A stretch of DNA of 57,702 nucleotides from a bacterium (GTDB lineage Bacteria; Hinthialibacterota; Hinthialibacteria; Hinthialibacterales; Hinthialibacteraceae): contig WGLV01000052.1 of the NCBI GenBank assembly GCA_016125385.1, positions 1-57,702 on the forward strand, read 5' to 3'. Positions 1,784 through 48,375 of this stretch are shown piece after piece. Both the position numbers and the translations under genes were made by a program. A model generated the notes under the pieces. That model did no database searches, was not told where the DNA came from, and was given only the letters and a program-made list of their open reading frames with translations. Within the stretch, counting starts at the first letter, position 1, and every line of letters starts with the position of its first letter.

Positions 1784-3244
<1,461 letters not shown>

Positions 3245-3359
3245 GTCTGGCTCCTTATCGTGGAATTTCGCTTGATTTCGAATTGTGGTTCAGATTGCTC
3301 CCCTCAAAACCGGAGAGTTGAAGAGACGCTGAAAACCACAGCCTTCAACGTCCGTTCAA

Positions 3360-3388
3360 CCTCCCCCGTCCGGTGAGAACGGGGGAGG
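3360..3388 (-). other. GC-rich hairpin between metK and ahcY
   Basis: Perfect 10-bp inverted repeat (CCTCCCCCGT at 3360-3369, ACGGGGGAGG at 3379-3388, 9-base loop) starting 15 bases past the metK stop. No T-run follows on either strand, so it is a poor intrinsic terminator. It could be a partial attenuator, an mRNA-stabilising 3' structure, or a remnant of a C-rich palindromic repeat like the one at 57594-57614. Confidence 0.6.
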
Positions 3389-3403
3389 AGCAGGGCGGTT
3401 GAA

Positions 3404-4543
3404 TTACTTTTTCAACGCGTCGACGTGGCTGAGCGCTTCCCACGGAAACTCGTCGCGGCCAAAGTGGCCATAGGCGGCCGAGTTGCGGTAGATCGGGCGG
3501 CGCAGATTGAGCCGGTCGATGATGGCGCGGGGGCGCAGGTCGAAGTTTTCACGGACCATTGTGGCGATCTTGTCTTCGTCGATCTTGTTGGTGCCGAAGG
3601 TTTCGACGTCGATCGAGACCGGCTGCGCGACGCCGATGGCGTAGGCGATGGCGACTTCGCACTTGTCGGCGAGGCCCGCCGCCACCACGTTTTTGGCGAC
3701 GTGACGCGCGGCGTACGCGGCGCTGCGGTCGACCTTGGAGGGGTCTTTACCCGAGAAGGCGCCGCCGCCGTGACGGCCCACGCCGCCGTAGGTGTCGACG
3801 ATGATCTTGCGGCCGGTCAGGCCGCAGTCGCCCATCGGGCCGCCCACCACGAACTTGCCGGTCGGGTTGACGTGATAATTCGTTTTTTCATGAAGCAGGC
3901 TGGTGGGGATCACTTTTTTACTGACCTCTTCCATCACCGCTTCCTTGATGTCTTTCTGGGTGATCTCGGGGGCGTGCTGGGTTGAGATGACCACCGCGTC
4001 GATGCGCTTCACCTTGCCGCCGTCGTAGATCACGCTCACCTGCGACTTGCCGTCCGAGCGCAGCCAGGGCAGCGTGCCGTTCTTGCGGACCTCGGCCAGA
4101 CGGCGGGTCAGCTTGTGGGCGTACATGATCGGGGTGGGCATGTACTCGGCGGTTTCGTTGCTGGCGTAACCGTACATCATGCCCTGGTCGCCGGCGCCCT
4201 GTTCGTGGCTGTCGCTTTCATCCACGCCCATCGAGATGTCGGGCGACTGGCGGTCGAGCGTGACCATCACGCCGCAGGTGTTGCAGTCGAAGCCGTACTC
4301 GGCCTTGTTGTAGCCGATTTCATCGACCACCTTGCGCGCCACTTCCTGATAGTTGATCTGGGCTTTGGTGGTGATTTCGCCGGCGATGACGATCAGGCCC
4401 GTGGTGATCAGCGTTTCACACGCCACGCGGCTCATCGGATCCTGCGCGAACAGCGCGTCGAGGACGCCGTCTGAAATCTGATCGGCGATTTTATCGGGAT
4501 GACCTTCCGTGACGGATTCGGACGTAATGATGCGTTCTGACAT
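3404..4543 (-). CDS. metK: S-adenosylmethionine synthetase
   Basis: Makes SAM from methionine and ATP in the cytosol. The 379 residues match the family's usual length. Signatures: [19 protein letters not shown] at the N-terminus (ATP/methionine-binding His and Asp), [12 protein letters not shown] in the middle (the MAT hexapeptide motif), the P-loop-like [18 protein letters not shown], and a C-terminus with [10 protein letters not shown]. The ATG at 4543 is preceded on its strand by a GAGG-type ribosome site (AATGAGGTACGGTA). The upstream region carries a perfect palindrome overlapping a possible TATGAT -10 box, shared with the divergent ArsR-methyltransferase gene, so repression through that site is likely. 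ahcY follows in the same direction. Confidence 0.98.
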
Positions 4544-4641
4544 TACCGTACCTCATTTCTCAGAATGGATTGTTGTTTTGGATTGGCTGAACCGCCCGGG
4601 ATGCGTGTGTCTCTTGCTCTCCGCGCGTTTCAGAATCATAC

Positions 4642-4663
4642 TATATCCGTTTATCCGGATATA
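4642..4663. promoter_or_regulatory. Palindromic operator candidate for the SahR-like regulator
   Basis: TATATCCG at 4642-4649 and CGGATATA at 4656-4663 form a perfect 8-bp inverted repeat with a 6-base centre. It sits in the divergent metK/regulator region. On the metK side it lies just upstream of a TATGAT-like -10 box; on the regulator side it ends at the first possible ATG. Size, symmetry and position fit an ArsR-family dimer site controlling both genes. That it is the binding site is inference. Confidence 0.65.
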
Positions 4664-4674
4664 TGCAAGTAATC

Positions 4675-5646
4675 ATGAACGCACACGCCGATCCCGTTAA
4701 AGTCAGCAAGGCGCTCTCCGACGAGACGCGCCTTCGCCTGTTGTGGCTGCTCGACGAACACGAGCTGTCCGTCAACGACATGGTCGAGATTCTCGGCTCC
4801 ACCCAGTCGCGCGTGTCGCGCCATCTCAATACGCTGAAAGAAGCCGGATTTCTCGAATGGCGCCGCGAAGGCACGTGGTCGTTCTACCGCAAGGCTGAAG
4901 AAGCCGCCATGCCGGCCGAGGTGGCGCGCGCGTGGGAGATGGTCCGCGCCTGGGGCGTCGGCGCCAGAACCGCCGAGGCCGATCATGCCAAACTGCACGA
5001 GGCGCTCGAGAGAAAACGGTCTCAAAGCCGCCGCTTTTTTGGCCAGCACGCCGAACAGTGGGATGAAATCCGTTCGCGAATCTGCGGTGAAATCGTTACC
5101 CTTCAAGCCTTTGAGTCGCTCATTCCCCCCCGCCTGGTCATCGCCGACGTCGGAACGGGGACCGGGCACATCCTGCTCAAACTCGCGCCGCTGGTGGCGC
5201 GCGCCATCGGCGTCGATAACTCCCGCAAAATGATTGCATTAGCGAAGAAAAACGCGAAAGAAACGGGGCTTGATAACGTCGAGCTCCGCTTTGGCGAGAT
5301 GGATTCTCTGCCGCTGGACGATGGCGAGGTTGACGCCGTGTTCGCCGGGCTGGTGCTGCACCACGCGCCCGACCCCGCCCACGCCATCGCTGAAATGGCC
5401 CGCGTGGTCAAACCCGGCGGGGTGGTCACGATCATCGATCTGCAACGTCATTCAGAAGACTGGATGCGCGAAGAACTCGCGCACAACTGGCTGGGCTTCG
5501 AGCGCGCCGACCTCATGCGCTGGCAGCAACGCGCCGGGCTGAAGGACGGCCGCTGGATCGAAGGCGTGGCCTCGCCCGAACCTTCCGAAAAGTCGAACGG
5601 GAAACTCCCCAACCTCAAAAGTTTCGTTTTTTACGGGCGAAAATAG
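4675..5646 (+). CDS. ArsR-family regulator fused to SAM-dependent methyltransferase domain (SahR-like)
   Basis: The N-terminal ~95 residues are a winged helix of ArsR type: KALSDETRLRLLWLLDEHEL, then SVNDMVEILGSTQSRVSRHLNTLK with its recognition helix, then a wing with FLEWRREGTWSFYR. From about residue 130 a class I methyltransferase fold follows: IADVGTGTGHILLKLAPL (motif I, SAM site), an acidic end to beta-2 (IGVDNS), and FAGLVLHHAPDPAHAI (post-motif). The established SahR regulators of Proteobacteria have this architecture, sense S-adenosylhomocysteine and control SAM-cycle genes. Position opposite metK-ahcY makes the same role likely here. ATG 4675 is preferred because the earlier ATG at 4663 overlaps the operator; neither has a strong ribosome site. 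An ordinary methyltransferase role is the alternative. Confidence 0.88.
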   Translation: MNAHADPVKVSKALSDETRLRLLWLLDEHELSVNDMVEILGSTQSRVSRHLNTLKEAGFLEWRREGTWSFYRKAEEAAMPAEVARAWEMVRAWGVGARTAEADHAKLHEALERKRSQSRRFFGQHAEQWDEIRSRICGEIVTLQAFESLIPPRLVIADVGTGTGHILLKLAPLVARAIGVDNSRKMIALAKKNAKETGLDNVELRFGEMDSLPLDDGEVDAVFAGLVLHHAPDPAHAIAEMARVVKPGGVVTIIDLQRHSEDWMREELAHNWLGFERADLMRWQQRAGLKDGRWIEGVASPEPSEKSNGKLPNLKSFVFYGRK

Positions 5647-43422: not shown

Positions 43423-44544
43423 ATGAGCGAACCGGTTCATTATCATCTAGGAAAATTTCCGCCCCAATCGATCCACTGGGAAAAGTTAATCCCCTTGATC
43501 GGACCAGCCAACGGGGCGATTGCCTCATTCAATGCCATTTTAAAAGCGATCCCCAATGCCTCCGTTTTATTAACCCCCATGACGACTCAGGAAGCGGTTT
43601 TGTCTTCGAGAATTGAAGGAACCCAGGCCACCATGGGCGAAGTACTGGAATTTGAAGCGGGTATGGGGAAAGGAGCAATTTCTTCTGAGCGCAAAGATGA
43701 TATTTACGAGATTATTAATTATCGTCGAGCTATGCGGCATGCGATTGAAATGATGGAGTCTTTGCCGCTATGCCTGAGGATTATACGGAAAACTCATGAG
43801 GTTCTTCTTTCCGATGTACGCGGGGGAAACAAAGCGCCGGGTAAATTTCGAAAGTCTTTAAACTGGATTGGTGCTCCCGGCTGTCCGATTGAACGAGCAA
43901 ATTTTATCCCGATATCCCCCGAGCTTTTGCCCGGCGCATTATCCGTATGGGAAGCCTACGTAAATCAACAAACTCTTGATGCCATCGTTCAACTTGCTGT
44001 GCTGCATGCGGAATTTGAAGCTTTGCACCCATTTCTGGATGGAAACGGACGACTCGGAAGAATTTTAATTCCTTTATTCCTCTATCAGAAAAAACTCCTG
44101 AGCCAACCCATTTTTTATATGAGCGCTTATCTGGAAAGCAACCGTAATGAATATTGTGAAAAGTTGCGCAACATTTCTCGTGATGATGATTGGACAGACT
44201 GGTGTGAATTTTTTCTGAGAGGGTTCATTTATCAAGCCGAAGAAAACCATAAAAAAGCATCAATGATTCTTGAGCTCTATTCCAACCAAAAAAATCTCGT
44301 TACTGAGTTGACTCATTCGCAACACGCCATTAAGGCAATTGATTTTGTGTTCACACGCCCCATTTTCGCGTCATCGGATTTTATCCAACAAGCGGATATT
44401 CCCGCGCCTTCAGCGAAGCGAATTCTACAACTTTTAGCAAAGAATAACGTTGTAAAAACATTGAGCCCTGGCCGCGGAAGCCGTCCCGCACGTTTTGTCT
44501 TTTCAGAATTGTTGAATATCGTCGAAGGAGAAAACCTGTTTTAA
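43423..44544 (+). CDS. Fic family protein (AMPylase-type) with inhibitory helix
   Basis: 373 residues. The Fic motif HPFLDGNGRLGR is at 202-213, with catalytic His202; the N-terminal inhibitory helix motif SSRIEG (61-66) places it in the class where an internal helix blocks ATP until displaced. The C-terminal ~85 residues look like a winged-helix (SDFIQQADIPAPSAKRILQLLAKNNVV). Fic enzymes transfer AMP or other phosphate-containing groups to target proteins; the target here is unknown. Base and codon use (many AAA, ATT, TTT) are clearly AT-richer than the flanking lepB-coaX and C25 genes, a sign of horizontal acquisition. Single gene, no antitoxin. Confidence 0.93.
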   Translation: MSEPVHYHLGKFPPQSIHWEKLIPLIGPANGAIASFNAILKAIPNASVLLTPMTTQEAVLSSRIEGTQATMGEVLEFEAGMGKGAISSERKDDIYEIINYRRAMRHAIEMMESLPLCLRIIRKTHEVLLSDVRGGNKAPGKFRKSLNWIGAPGCPIERANFIPISPELLPGALSVWEAYVNQQTLDAIVQLAVLHAEFEALHPFLDGNGRLGRILIPLFLYQKKLLSQPIFYMSAYLESNRNEYCEKLRNISRDDDWTDWCEFFLRGFIYQAEENHKKASMILELYSNQKNLVTELTHSQHAIKAIDFVFTRPIFASSDFIQQADIPAPSAKRILQLLAKNNVVKTLSPGRGSRPARFVFSELLNIVEGENLF

Positions 44545-44631: not shown

Positions 44632-47600
44632 CTACTTGCTGTTGAACACATTGTTTACTTCATACCGGAAGAGGTTGTTTTCGTGTGATTCTTCGTCGAC
44701 GATCTCATCGGGGTCGATGAGAATCTCGAACGCGCTGATATCCGCGGGGATTTTGATGCCGCCCGCCGCGTAGCGCCCCCCGGCGGAAAGTTCGATCGCC
44801 TCGGGAACGCGTATGCTGACCCGCTCGCCGGAACCGCGCCGGTAAAACGCCATCTCCACCACGATTTTTGAAGCCGGGCTTTCGCCGATGTTTTTGATGG
44901 CGAAGCCAACCTGAAAGCGCTTGCCGTTTTCAATCGGGGTCAGGTTAAACTCGTCTTCCGCGACGATGAGATCGGCTTTGCGTAATACAGTGATTTGAAT
45001 TTCGGCGAGGTTGTCGTCTTCATCGCTCTCCCCGATCTGGTTATAGGGGTCGATTTCAGCGGCGAGTTCATACGAGCCGTGATCGCCTGTCGGGTCCCAG
45101 CGCAGGCGAACCCGCTTGCTCTGGCCGGGGTCGATCCGCTTGATGACGGCGCTCCGATCGCCCACCACCACGGTCATTGGCGACTTGTTTTTGCCGAGTT
45201 CGGCCTGCTCGCCCTGTACGGTCACGTTCATCGCACTGGCCTGGCCGGTGTTTTCGATAACGGCGTCGAGAAAAACGGTTTCGCCCGAGCGCGGCTCATG
45301 CGGCGTGATCGTCAACGAATCCGGTTTTACGCGAAGATTGGGCAGGCGTCCGGTGGTCGGTTCGATCAGCGGCCCCGCGATGAAGGGAGTGACTTCAACC
45401 GCGCCGTGCGCCACGGCGGCGCGTCCGCCGCTCATACCGATCTGTTCCGCGCCGATGCGCAGGGGCGGTTCGTAATCCGGCGTTAAGCGAAACGCGGGAG
45501 CGTCGAGCCGCGCGCCGGGCGTGAGCGTCGCATAGTCAATGACTCCCCGGGCGTCGCTCGCCCATGCGGCGGCGCGGGCGATGGATGCGGGCGGTTCGGA
45601 AGCCGTCCATACGGTTGAAAAGTTTTCATCCAAATCGCCATGCTCAAGCGTGGTGAATTTAGGGAACCGGATCGTCGGGTCGCCGAGAAAAGTAAACTGA
45701 TCGTTCGACTCGAGCCGCGACTGCGCGGCGAGACCGAATAACTCGGCCGCCATCAGAATCTGCCCCTGCGTTTCCAACTTCAGGCTGAAGGCGGCTTCGT
45801 GCAGCCCGCGCGCCAGCACGATGTGATCGTGGGGGTACCCGCGCCCTGTGGCGCCTAACAACCCCACCGCGCCGCCCTCGGGCCGCGACAGCAGGTCTTC
45901 GCCGATGGAGATGTTCCATTTTTCGCGCGGGTAATCGAATTTACACGTCTCGCAACTGAACGACCAGAACAGAAACGGTTTTCCATCGTTAGCCAGTTTT
46001 TTCACGTCGGTATATTTTGACCCGCCGCCGAAAAACATTCGTTCATCGCCGACCACGTTGGGCGCGCCGTGCCCGTAAAATTCCCACAGCCAGACGCCCT
46101 GATTCAGTTTGTGGATGATGTCTTCGGTTGCCGCCAGGCTGGTCTTGGCGCGCGTCTCGGCGCGCAGCCGCGCGGGAAGATAGATGTTGTCGACCAGCGG
46201 GTAATCGCGGATATGACGCCGCGTCAGCCTGAATCCTTCGGGCATCCAGCGCGACGCTAGTTCATCGGTATACCGCTCAAAGCCGTCGTCGGTCACCATG
46301 AAAACCTGGTTGAGCCACGGACCGAGAGGAGGCCGCTCTTTGTACTCAATGGTTTTGTGAATCAGCGTGGCCAACTCTTCTGCAGAGCGCACCGGCCAGC
46401 GCGCGATCGACATATCCGGCAACAGATCGTCTTTCCCGTCGAGCCGAACGTACCAGCCGTCGACCGAATATTCCGGCGCGAGCCGGTAACCGGGTACGAA
46501 ATTTTTGACGCCGACGCCGTAACGATCGTGGTAATCCCAGGTGGCGTCTCCCGCGAGCAGGACATAACTGGGCGCGCCGTTCCATTCATGATACGCCCAG
46601 TTGATATAGCGCTTGATGGCGTGTGGAGAGAGCCTGCCATCGCCGAAGAGATCGTAAATCGCCTCCACCGCTTCCGCGCGAGTCGTATAACCCTGCCGCT
46701 TCAACTGAGCGGCGAAGGGCGAGAACCCGCCGATCCACGCGGCGGGCGCGATGATGAGGACATCCGCCGCGTCGCGCCGTAAGAGAGAACGGTGCATGCC
46801 AACGCTGAAATCGACTGCTTTCACCGTTGCATTGACGCTTCGCGCGCCCGCCGGAAGGAAGAAAACTTCGCCGGTGGGAGGCAGCGTCACGCCTGCGTCA
46901 ACGGGCGCGAAACGCCAGTCGTCCGCGCTGTTCCGCGAACGCCAATACGTGCCGACCCCTTCCATCGGCTTGAGGGATACGGGATGACCAGGCGTTTCAT
47001 ACGGCGAAGCGGAAGGCGCGACGGGCGACGCCCAGGCGAGCTCGATCCAGTCGAGATACGCCGCGTCGTAACGCCGCTTCAGTGAAGCGGGGTCGTCAAG
47101 CGTGAAGCCCAAACGGTTTGCTGATGGCTTGATCAAATCCGCGTTCAGCCGGGCGGTCAGGGTGACGAAATCGCCTTCCACGTGCGGAGTGCATTCGGGC
47201 GTTACGCCGTTGAGAGTCAACGTGGCTGAGTCGATGAACGCATTGGGGGCGCCCGATTGCATCAGCAGATGAACACGCATTTCCACCACGCCGCTGAGAC
47301 TTGGAGCATTGAATTCAACCGCGGGCGTCGGTTCGGAAAGCAGATCGCTCCACATCCAGTACCGGTTTTGCTCGTCGCCCGAGTCGCGTCCGGCGGCGAA
47401 CTCCAGATCATGTTCGATTCGCATGCGCCGAGTTAGCGAGTCGGCGCGCGGCGAGTCGCTGGATGGCTCAAGCGGAGTGAAGGTTTTATGCCCGGCGGCG
47501 TTGTTCGCCAGCCATGTGACGGTTTCGGTGGCGTAGCTGGAGGTTGAGGCGGGTGCGAAAAATCGAACCACGCCGCCCGGCTTGAGCGGGCCGTTGTCGA

Positions 47601-48375
47601 CCGGCGCGCCGGCGTCGCTGAAAATCTGCACGGGCGCTGGCGCGCCGTCCTGATACGCCGACAGCGATTCGACGTTGATCGGACCCAACTGGTTGATGAC
47701 GTCATGCGCCCCGAGGGTGCAAAATCCTTCTTCTTCCGTCGTGACTTTCAGGGCGAGTGTGGTTGTGTATGGCGCGGGAGCCGCTTCAGGCGTGGAAGCC
47801 GTCTGACGCGCGGGGGGAAAGTTTACGAAAAGCGATCGGGCGATTTGATCCAGATCGTTGGGCAGGCCCGCGAACGGTTGAGAATCGAGTTGAGAAAAAC
47901 GGATGACGACTTCGCCATCGGGAAACCATACGCCGTCGGCGACCGGGCTGAAATAGAGCCGCAGGACGGCGATGCGGCAATGGCGCCAAACGCCGATCTC
48001 GCGCAACTCGCCCCGCGGGCGTGAACGGCTGGGGAACGCCTCGCGGTATTCCTTCTCACCGCCGCCGAGGGTTTTTCCGTCTTTCGATTGCGTCCACACA
48101 AACGAAACCGTTTCCGTGGTTGCGCTCTCCACCGGACCGGGGGCGAACAGCAGAATTCGAACGGCTTCGTTATCAGGTTTGGAAAAACGCCAGCGCAGGC
48201 GAATTTCGTCTGGCTGGTTTGATGGCATGACAGTCAGATCGTGGGAGAGAAGGGCGCCCAGGCGAGGTTCATCGCCATACGCGACGGGCGCCAGCGCGGT
48301 GAGGGTCAATGCGAATACGACAATCCACGAATGAGCGCGGCGCGGCGGGCGTTTCGTCGAGATGAGATCGATCAT
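44632..48375 (-). CDS. C25 (gingipain-like) peptidase, exported, with CARDB-like C-terminus
   Basis: 1247 residues with a signal peptide (SWIVVFALTLTALAPVAYG). The N-terminal ~530 residues look like beta-sandwich pro/structural domains. The peptidase C25 region (about 540-900) reads LIIAPAAWIGGFSPFAAQLKRQGYTTR, PSYVLLAGDATWDY, then the catalytic His in EFYGHGAPNVVG (about 769) and Cys in FWSFSCETCKFD (about 807). The last ~200 residues contain repeated CARDB-like adhesion domains (VTVQGEQAELGKN; LIVAEDEFNLTPIENGKRFQVGFAIKNIGESPASKIVVEM). C25 enzymes are secreted cysteine proteases in Bacteroidetes (type IX cargo), but no type IX C-terminal signal is recognised here. It converges with fic. Confidence 0.85.
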   Translation of the reverse strand: MIDLISTKRPPRRAHSWIVVFALTLTALAPVAYGDEPRLGALLSHDLTVMPSNQPDEIRLRWRFSKPDNEAVRILLFAPGPVESATTETVSFVWTQSKDGKTLGGGEKEYREAFPSRSRPRGELREIGVWRHCRIAVLRLYFSPVADGVWFPDGEVVIRFSQLDSQPFAGLPNDLDQIARSLFVNFPPARQTASTPEAAPAPYTTTLALKVTTEEEGFCTLGAHDVINQLGPINVESLSAYQDGAPAPVQIFSDAGAPVDNGPLKPGGVVRFFAPASTSSYATETVTWLANNAAGHKTFTPLEPSSDSPRADSLTRRMRIEHDLEFAAGRDSGDEQNRYWMWSDLLSEPTPAVEFNAPSLSGVVEMRVHLLMQSGAPNAFIDSATLTLNGVTPECTPHVEGDFVTLTARLNADLIKPSANRLGFTLDDPASLKRRYDAAYLDWIELAWASPVAPSASPYETPGHPVSLKPMEGVGTYWRSRNSADDWRFAPVDAGVTLPPTGEVFFLPAGARSVNATVKAVDFSVGMHRSLLRRDAADVLIIAPAAWIGGFSPFAAQLKRQGYTTRAEAVEAIYDLFGDGRLSPHAIKRYINWAYHEWNGAPSYVLLAGDATWDYHDRYGVGVKNFVPGYRLAPEYSVDGWYVRLDGKDDLLPDMSIARWPVRSAEELATLIHKTIEYKERPPLGPWLNQVFMVTDDGFERYTDELASRWMPEGFRLTRRHIRDYPLVDNIYLPARLRAETRAKTSLAATEDIIHKLNQGVWLWEFYGHGAPNVVGDERMFFGGGSKYTDVKKLANDGKPFLFWSFSCETCKFDYPREKWNISIGEDLLSRPEGGAVGLLGATGRGYPHDHIVLARGLHEAAFSLKLETQGQILMAAELFGLAAQSRLESNDQFTFLGDPTIRFPKFTTLEHGDLDENFSTVWTASEPPASIARAAAWASDARGVIDYATLTPGARLDAPAFRLTPDYEPPLRIGAEQIGMSGGRAAVAHGAVEVTPFIAGPLIEPTTGRLPNLRVKPDSLTITPHEPRSGETVFLDAVIENTGQASAMNVTVQGEQAELGKNKSPMTVVVGDRSAVIKRIDPGQSKRVRLRWDPTGDHGSYELAAEIDPYNQIGESDEDDNLAEIQITVLRKADLIVAEDEFNLTPIENGKRFQVGFAIKNIGESPASKIVVEMAFYRRGSGERVSIRVPEAIELSAGGRYAAGGIKIPADISAFEILIDPDEIVDEESHENNLFRYEVNNVFNSK

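What the first reader, a model, noticed from the sequence alone, without database searches (positions are those of the whole stretch)
4642..5646. SahR-like regulator and perfect palindrome facing metK-ahcY
The window shows metK and ahcY in one direction and, divergently, an ArsR winged helix fused to a class I methyltransferase fold. A perfect 8+8 bp palindrome lies between them. Established SahR regulators of Proteobacteria have this two-domain architecture, sense S-adenosylhomocysteine and control SAM-cycle genes. If the host is PVC-like or from a candidate phylum, this would widen the known range. That the regulator is SAH-sensing and that the palindrome is its site are inferences from context.
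Basis: partly seen in the sequence, partly recalled or inferred. Interest (0 to 1): 0.6.

Follow-up and report, generated by a model that had tools for sequence, protein, structure and literature searches.

The report
SahR-type SAM-cycle repressor, candidate phylum
A bacterium of the uncultured phylum Hinthialibacterota carries a SahR-type switch, so far described in the literature read here only from Proteobacteria, and a near-identical DNA operator sits in front of its methionine/SAM-cycle genes in several related genera, with a changed recognition sequence.

Summary
The window carries metK-ahcY on one strand and, divergently, a 323-residue ArsR-HTH + class I methyltransferase protein (start 4675, not 4663). 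The perfect palindrome ATATCCG-N6-CGGATAT (4643-4662) lies between them. The window's exact 20-mer recurs once in the rest of the 5.5 Mb genome, in front of metH. Near-perfect copies precede metK in all four related genera that have the regulator (including one where sahR has moved away) and metH in three of the four. The ten genomes of the phylum without the regulator lack it there. At metK the operator fills the 17-bp spacer of a conserved TTGCAT-N17-TATANT promoter-like element, so repression by occlusion is the likely mechanism. Homologues in Alphaproteobacteria, Desulfuromonadales, Latescibacterota and Gemmatimonadota mostly lie beside metH or ahcY (74 of 80 loci) and have 20-bp palindromes of the same layout, with AAA or CAA where this lineage has CCG. 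The host is the OLB16/SURF_12 lineage (Ca. Hinthialibacterota). SAH as effector is inherited from the family, not shown. A new phylum and a third operator specificity for a known regulator: solid, moderately interesting.

The parts
4675..5646 (+). sahR: ArsR-type winged helix + class I SAM/SAH-binding methyltransferase-fold domain, 323 aa
   Evidence: Pfam HTH_5 5.3e-12, Methyltransf_11 7e-25; AlphaFold mean pLDDT 92.4, pTM 0.89; orthologues 72/59/59% in three related genera; start codon corrected by comparison with G006
4643..4662 (.). SahR operator ATATCCGTTTATCCGGATAT (perfect 7+6+7; palindrome extends to 4642-4663)
   Evidence: exact second copy upstream of metH, conserved in G002, G005, G006
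4663..4668 (-). -35-like hexamer TTGCAT of the metK promoter
   Evidence: identical in four genera, 17 bp from the -10, although only 3 of 6 to the sigma70 consensus and so not listed by the generic scan; inferred
4640..4645 (-). -10-like hexamer TATAGT of the metK promoter; operator bases 4646-4662 form the 17-bp spacer
   Evidence: TATAGT/TATATT/TATAAT/TATACT in four genera; inferred
4614..4642 (+). candidate sahR promoter TTGCTC-N17-CATACT, with the operator directly downstream of the -10
   Evidence: read from the sequence; the other three genera have TTGACG or TTGACC at the equivalent place; inferred
3404..4543 (-). metK, methionine adenosyltransferase, target gene
   Evidence: TIGR01034 609.7 bits
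1784..3244 (-). ahcY, S-adenosylhomocysteine hydrolase, downstream target gene
   Evidence: TIGR00936 626.4 bits
3245..3403 (-). metK-ahcY intergenic stretch with a strong hairpin; no operator and no known riboswitch
   Evidence: z = -3.66; no Rfam match

Best explanation
A SahR-type autoregulated repressor of the SAM cycle. Shown from sequence: the two-domain protein, the conserved operator, and its placement at sahR/metK-ahcY and at metH. Inferred: a SahR dimer binds ATATCCG-N6-CGGATAT. At metK it covers the spacer between -35 and -10; on the sahR side it lies just downstream of the -10. When S-adenosylhomocysteine accumulates, it binds the methyltransferase-fold domain and SahR lets go, so MetK, AhcY, MetH (and SahR) are made and SAH is cleared back to methionine and SAM. 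Relative to Proteobacterial SahR, the inner operator triplet has shifted to CCG/CGG together with changes in the DNA-reading helix.
For: (i) Domain architecture and a confident fold in both domains; SAM/SAH-loop glycines G160, G162, G164 and acidic D181 are invariant in 83 homologues. (ii) The exact 20-mer recurs once more in the 5.5 Mb genome, about 100 bp before metH, with a second overlapping site. (iii) Best site score upstream of metK is 12-14 of 14 in the four genera with sahR and 8-10 in the ten genomes without it; for metH 14, 14, 12, 10 against 8-9. (iv) In G002 sahR is elsewhere, yet metK and metH each keep a perfect site. (v) TTGCAT-N17-TATANT around the site at metK in 4 of 4 genera. 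(vi) 74 of 80 homologous loci lie beside ahcY or metH, most with 20-bp palindromes of the same geometry. (vii) Published SahR: ArsR family, 20-bp palindrome, core regulon sahR, ahcY, metH, metF, metK; consensus ATC-N10-GAT shared by gamma SahR and SamR (PMC4239095), which this motif meets. (viii) No SAM/SAH riboswitch at these genes.
Against: No binding or expression data. The metK -35 matches consensus at only 3 of 6. G005 metH has only a weak candidate site (10/14), and the sahR copy in G002 is degenerate (11/14). The four genera belong to one family, so the co-occurrence is not four independent events. metF was not shown to carry a site. The characterised Desulfovibrio protein was not in the tree.
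Confidence: 0.87

Rival explanations
1. Same regulator and operator, but the effector is SAM (SamR-like): SAM acts as co-repressor and shuts off metK and metH.
For: The methyltransferase fold could bind either ligand. SamR of Xanthomonadales is a SahR relative suggested to respond to SAM (PMC4239095). MetK is a SAM producer.
Against: SamR uses a 24-bp palindrome and its regulon lacks SAM-cycle genes other than metK (PMC4239095); here the palindrome is 20 bp, ahcY lies in the target operon, and the homologues in several other phyla sit beside ahcY.
Confidence: 0.12
2. An active methyltransferase with an accessory DNA-binding domain (for example arsenite or small-molecule methylation) whose neighbourhood with metK is incidental.
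For: The methyltransferase domain resembles ArsM/UbiE-type enzymes by profile and keeps the SAM-binding motif.
Against: The operator recurs at metH far from the gene and stays at metK in G002 where sahR has moved. The protein has a single cysteine, C137, so ArsR/ArsM-type thiolate arsenic sites are not available.
Confidence: 0.04
3. The palindrome is the site of another regulator, or a transcript feature, and SahR is unrelated to it.
For: No binding data exist; G000 has five other ArsR-type domains.
Against: The site co-occurs with sahR: absent at metK/metH in the ten phylum genomes without it. It has the same geometry as the palindromes in front of sahR in other phyla, and its inner triplet changes together with SahR's recognition helix.
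Confidence: 0.05

Closest known systems
SahR of delta- and gamma-Proteobacteria (Desulfovibrio SahR; P. aeruginosa PA0547)
   Same: ArsR-family regulator of SAM-cycle genes; 20-bp palindrome fitting ATC-N10-GAT; core targets metK, ahcY, metH and sahR (PMC4239095; PMC7950407 for PA0547)
   Different: About 34-39% identity to Desulfuromonadales homologues; inner triplet CCG/CGG instead of CAA/TTG; recognition-helix residues T/S43 and N/T52 instead of G43 and K/R52; host phylum Hinthialibacterota
SahR of Alphaproteobacteria
   Same: Same two domains, same palindrome geometry, usually beside metH
   Different: Operator ATATAAA-N6-TTTATAT; helix S-Q-P-R...K/R; a separate side of the tree
SamR of Xanthomonadales
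   Same: Distant SahR homologue controlling metK, metH and other methionine genes
   Different: 24-bp palindrome and no ahcY in the regulon (PMC4239095)
SAM, SAH and SAM-SAH riboswitches; MetJ
   Same: Control the same pathway in other bacteria
   Different: RNA or ribbon-helix-helix control; no riboswitch found at these loci

Membership tests
SahR | ArsR-type HTH fused to a class I methyltransferase-fold domain with an intact SAM/SAH loop | tested here: met
SahR | 20-bp palindromic operator fitting ATC-N10-GAT | tested here: met
   ATATCCG-N6-CGGATAT; published consensus PMC4239095
SahR | Operators at core SAM-cycle genes metK/ahcY and metH | tested here: met
   metK in 4 of 4 and metH in 3 of 4 genera
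SahR | Operator at metF | tested here: inconclusive
   No site within 2 mismatches was found at a gene other than sahR/metK and metH in the window's genome; metF itself was not located
SahR | Autoregulation site at sahR | tested here: met
   G000, G005 and G006 share the divergent operator; degenerate (11/14) in G002
SahR | Groups with SahR proteins of Proteobacteria rather than with other ArsR-methyltransferases | tested here: inconclusive
   Best homologues outside the phylum are SahR-context proteins of delta- and Alphaproteobacteria, Latescibacterota and Gemmatimonadota; no non-SahR ArsR-methyltransferase outgroup and no Desulfovibrio SahR in hand
SahR | SAH binding changes operator binding | not testable with these tools
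   needs protein
SamR | 24-bp palindrome; regulon without ahcY | tested here: not met
   20-bp palindrome, ahcY in the target operon
ArsR/SmtB metalloregulator | Cysteine thiolate metal or arsenic site | tested here: not met
   single Cys137; ELSVNDM in place of the ELCVCDL-type motif (the motif is from general knowledge)
SAM/SAH riboswitch | Rfam match in the leader of metK, ahcY or metH | tested here: not met

The most novel reading that the evidence does not exclude
SahR is an old, widely spread SAM-cycle regulator found in several phyla outside Proteobacteria (Hinthialibacterota, Latescibacterota, Gemmatimonadota). Its operator specificity has diverged in a readable way: the inner half-site triplet AAA, CAA or CCG tracks recognition-helix residues 43, 45 and 52, with the Hinthialibacterota type a previously undescribed third class.
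Probability: 0.6. Interest if true: 0.5.

Novelty: new member of a known kind. Interest (0 to 1): 0.42.

Why it matters
It moves SahR-type repression of the SAM cycle beyond Proteobacteria, to an uncultured phylum and, by the same scan, to Latescibacterota and Gemmatimonadota. In these genomes no riboswitch was found at the SAM-cycle genes examined. Three operator triplets paired with three recognition-helix types give a small natural test of how an ArsR-fold protein changes DNA specificity.

Tried and rejected
A single-sequence scan of genome contigs found no relatives; the four-sequence alignment did. Loose pattern scans (up to 3 mismatches outside the spacer) are swamped by chance and coding hits, so a spacer-aware 20-mer was used. 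Weaker hits C60:18905, C12:183289 and C8:6223 lie inside ORFs, and C9:69805 and C2:152236 lie near genes with no evident link to the SAM cycle, as does the 2-mismatch hit in G002 C58, inside a long glycosidase-like ORF; all rejected. A plasmid search for outgroups gave almost only methyltransferase-domain matches. The generic promoter scan listed no promoter over the operator; the promoter claim rests on conservation in four genera. Arsenic sensing was rejected for lack of cysteines.

Full report
Observation. The window contains metK (3404-4543, -), ahcY (1784-3244, -) and, divergently, an ORF with an ArsR HTH and a class I methyltransferase domain. The palindrome TATATCCG-N6-CGGATATA is at 4642-4663. 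On its own it is only mildly improbable (0.07 expected matches within 3 mismatches in the window; P about 0.024 for any such repeat in the gap).

Start codon. The frame can begin at ATG 4663 or ATG 4675. In relative G006 the ATG matching 4663 runs into a stop and only the second is in frame. The segment around 4663-4668 is kept at metK in G002 although sahR is elsewhere. The gene is therefore taken to start at 4675 (323 aa).

Host. The phylum holds 14 genomes in the search set. Relative G006 contig 33 and the GenBank contig QZKN01000069 of isolate SURF_12 have the same length (54,863) and the same SahR locus. SURF_12 is labelled Omnitrophota in GenBank, but the OLB16/SURF_12 lineage was misclassified as such (PMC10066038), and OLB16 is Candidatus Hinthialibacterota (PMC11382960). 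The window genome is in the same family as G006. The phylum name is thus an inference from these steps.

Regulon. A spacer-aware pattern (ATATCCGTWYATCCGGWTAT, up to 3 mismatches) was run over all 14 genomes. In the window's genome it finds the exact 20-mer twice: at sahR/metK and on contig 51, about 100 bp before a 1167-residue cobalamin-dependent MetH, with a second overlapping site beside it. In G002 two perfect sites lie before metK-ahcY and before metH, while sahR is on another contig. G006 has sites at sahR/metK and metH; G005 has one at sahR/metK. Scored on the 14 specified positions, metK upstream regions give 14, 14, 13, 12 in genomes with sahR and 8-10 in the ten without; metH gives 14, 14, 12, 10 against 8-9. 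Two genera of the same family without sahR (G003, G004) also lack the sites. No SAM or SAH riboswitch was found.

Promoter geometry. Read towards metK, the operator is flanked by TTGCAT and TATA(G/T/A/C)T exactly 17 bp apart in all four genera. The -35 is weak by consensus and the generic scan does not list it, so this rests on conservation. Towards sahR a TTG(A/C)xx element lies upstream with the operator just after the -10 (by eye). A bound dimer would block both promoters: a repressor arrangement.

Relatives. The alignment-based scan of 84,980 genomes gave 80 loci. 74 have ahcY or metH in the flanks (counting the Hinthialibacterota locus L078), and most have a 20-bp palindrome of the same layout before the regulator: ATATAAA-N6-TTTATAT in Alphaproteobacteria; ATATCAA-N6-TTGATAT in Desulfuromonadales, Myxococcota-labelled MAGs, Latescibacterota and Gemmatimonadota. 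The tree puts the four Hinthialibacterota proteins together (SH-aLRT 99) on the non-alphaproteobacterial side (100); L079, a Planctomycetota-labelled MAG at 40-44%, joins them on a long branch without the operator or the neighbours. The root is arbitrary and no non-SahR outgroup was available.

Specificity. Residues 43, 44, 45 and 52 read S-Q-P-K/R with AAA operators, G-Q-S-K/R with CAA, and T/S-Q-S-N/T with CCG (the CCG class for the window, G002 and G005 was assigned by me from the inspected sites). This is a correlation across three clades, so phylogeny alone could produce it. Taxon-specific substitutions in SahR motifs are already documented within Proteobacteria (PMC5343134).

Mechanism and knowledge. 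SahR is described as an ArsR-family repressor of SAM-cycle genes whose effector is SAH (PMC4239095, PMC8877191). The model has high confidence (pLDDT 92.4), its best PDB matches are SAM/SAH-binding methyltransferases, and no solved two-domain SahR appeared among the best 50. SAH sensing here is inherited from the family, not shown.

Verdict. The finding is real and its interpretation is supported. It is a SahR system in a new phylum with a shifted operator: a new member of a known kind. The papers searched (open-access PMC only) hold no report of SahR outside Proteobacteria, which does not prove there is none.

Noticed in passing
L096, L111, L132, L144, L115, L124, L147 (flanks of the sahR-like gene): SahR-like gene directly followed by ahcY, mostly with a perfect ATATCAATAAATCTTGATAT-type palindrome, in MAGs labelled Latescibacterota and Gemmatimonadota. 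L121, labelled Gemmatimonas phototrophica, is nearly identical to the Latescibacterota proteins, so its label is doubtful.
   Followed up: partly
L014:11324-12613 (G006, SURF_12): The SAH hydrolase behind metK in this relative is a different subtype, only 39% identical to the window's AhcY: an enzyme swap inside a conserved regulated operon.
   Followed up: no
L012:7579-9382 and L014:8183-10011: A hexapeptide acyltransferase (LpxD-like by eye) sits convergently beside sahR in both G002 and G006; in G002 a rearrangement has separated sahR from metK at the operator, with metK keeping the perfect site.
   Followed up: partly
window 3245-3403 (-): The metK-ahcY gap folds more stably than shuffles (z -3.66) with a 12-bp GC hairpin and no Rfam match; the gap is only about 60 nt in G002.
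   Followed up: partly
L070:7079-7106 (G000 contig 51): The metH operator is double: ATATTCGTATATCCGGATAA overlaps the perfect site by 12 bp, giving three half-sites in a row.
   Followed up: no
window 44632-48375 (-): Gingipain-type peptidase C25 with a CARDB domain, 1247 aa.
   Followed up: no
window 43423-44544 (+): Fic/DOC protein with Fic_N domain next to a type III pantothenate kinase-like ORF (the kinase by eye).
   Followed up: no
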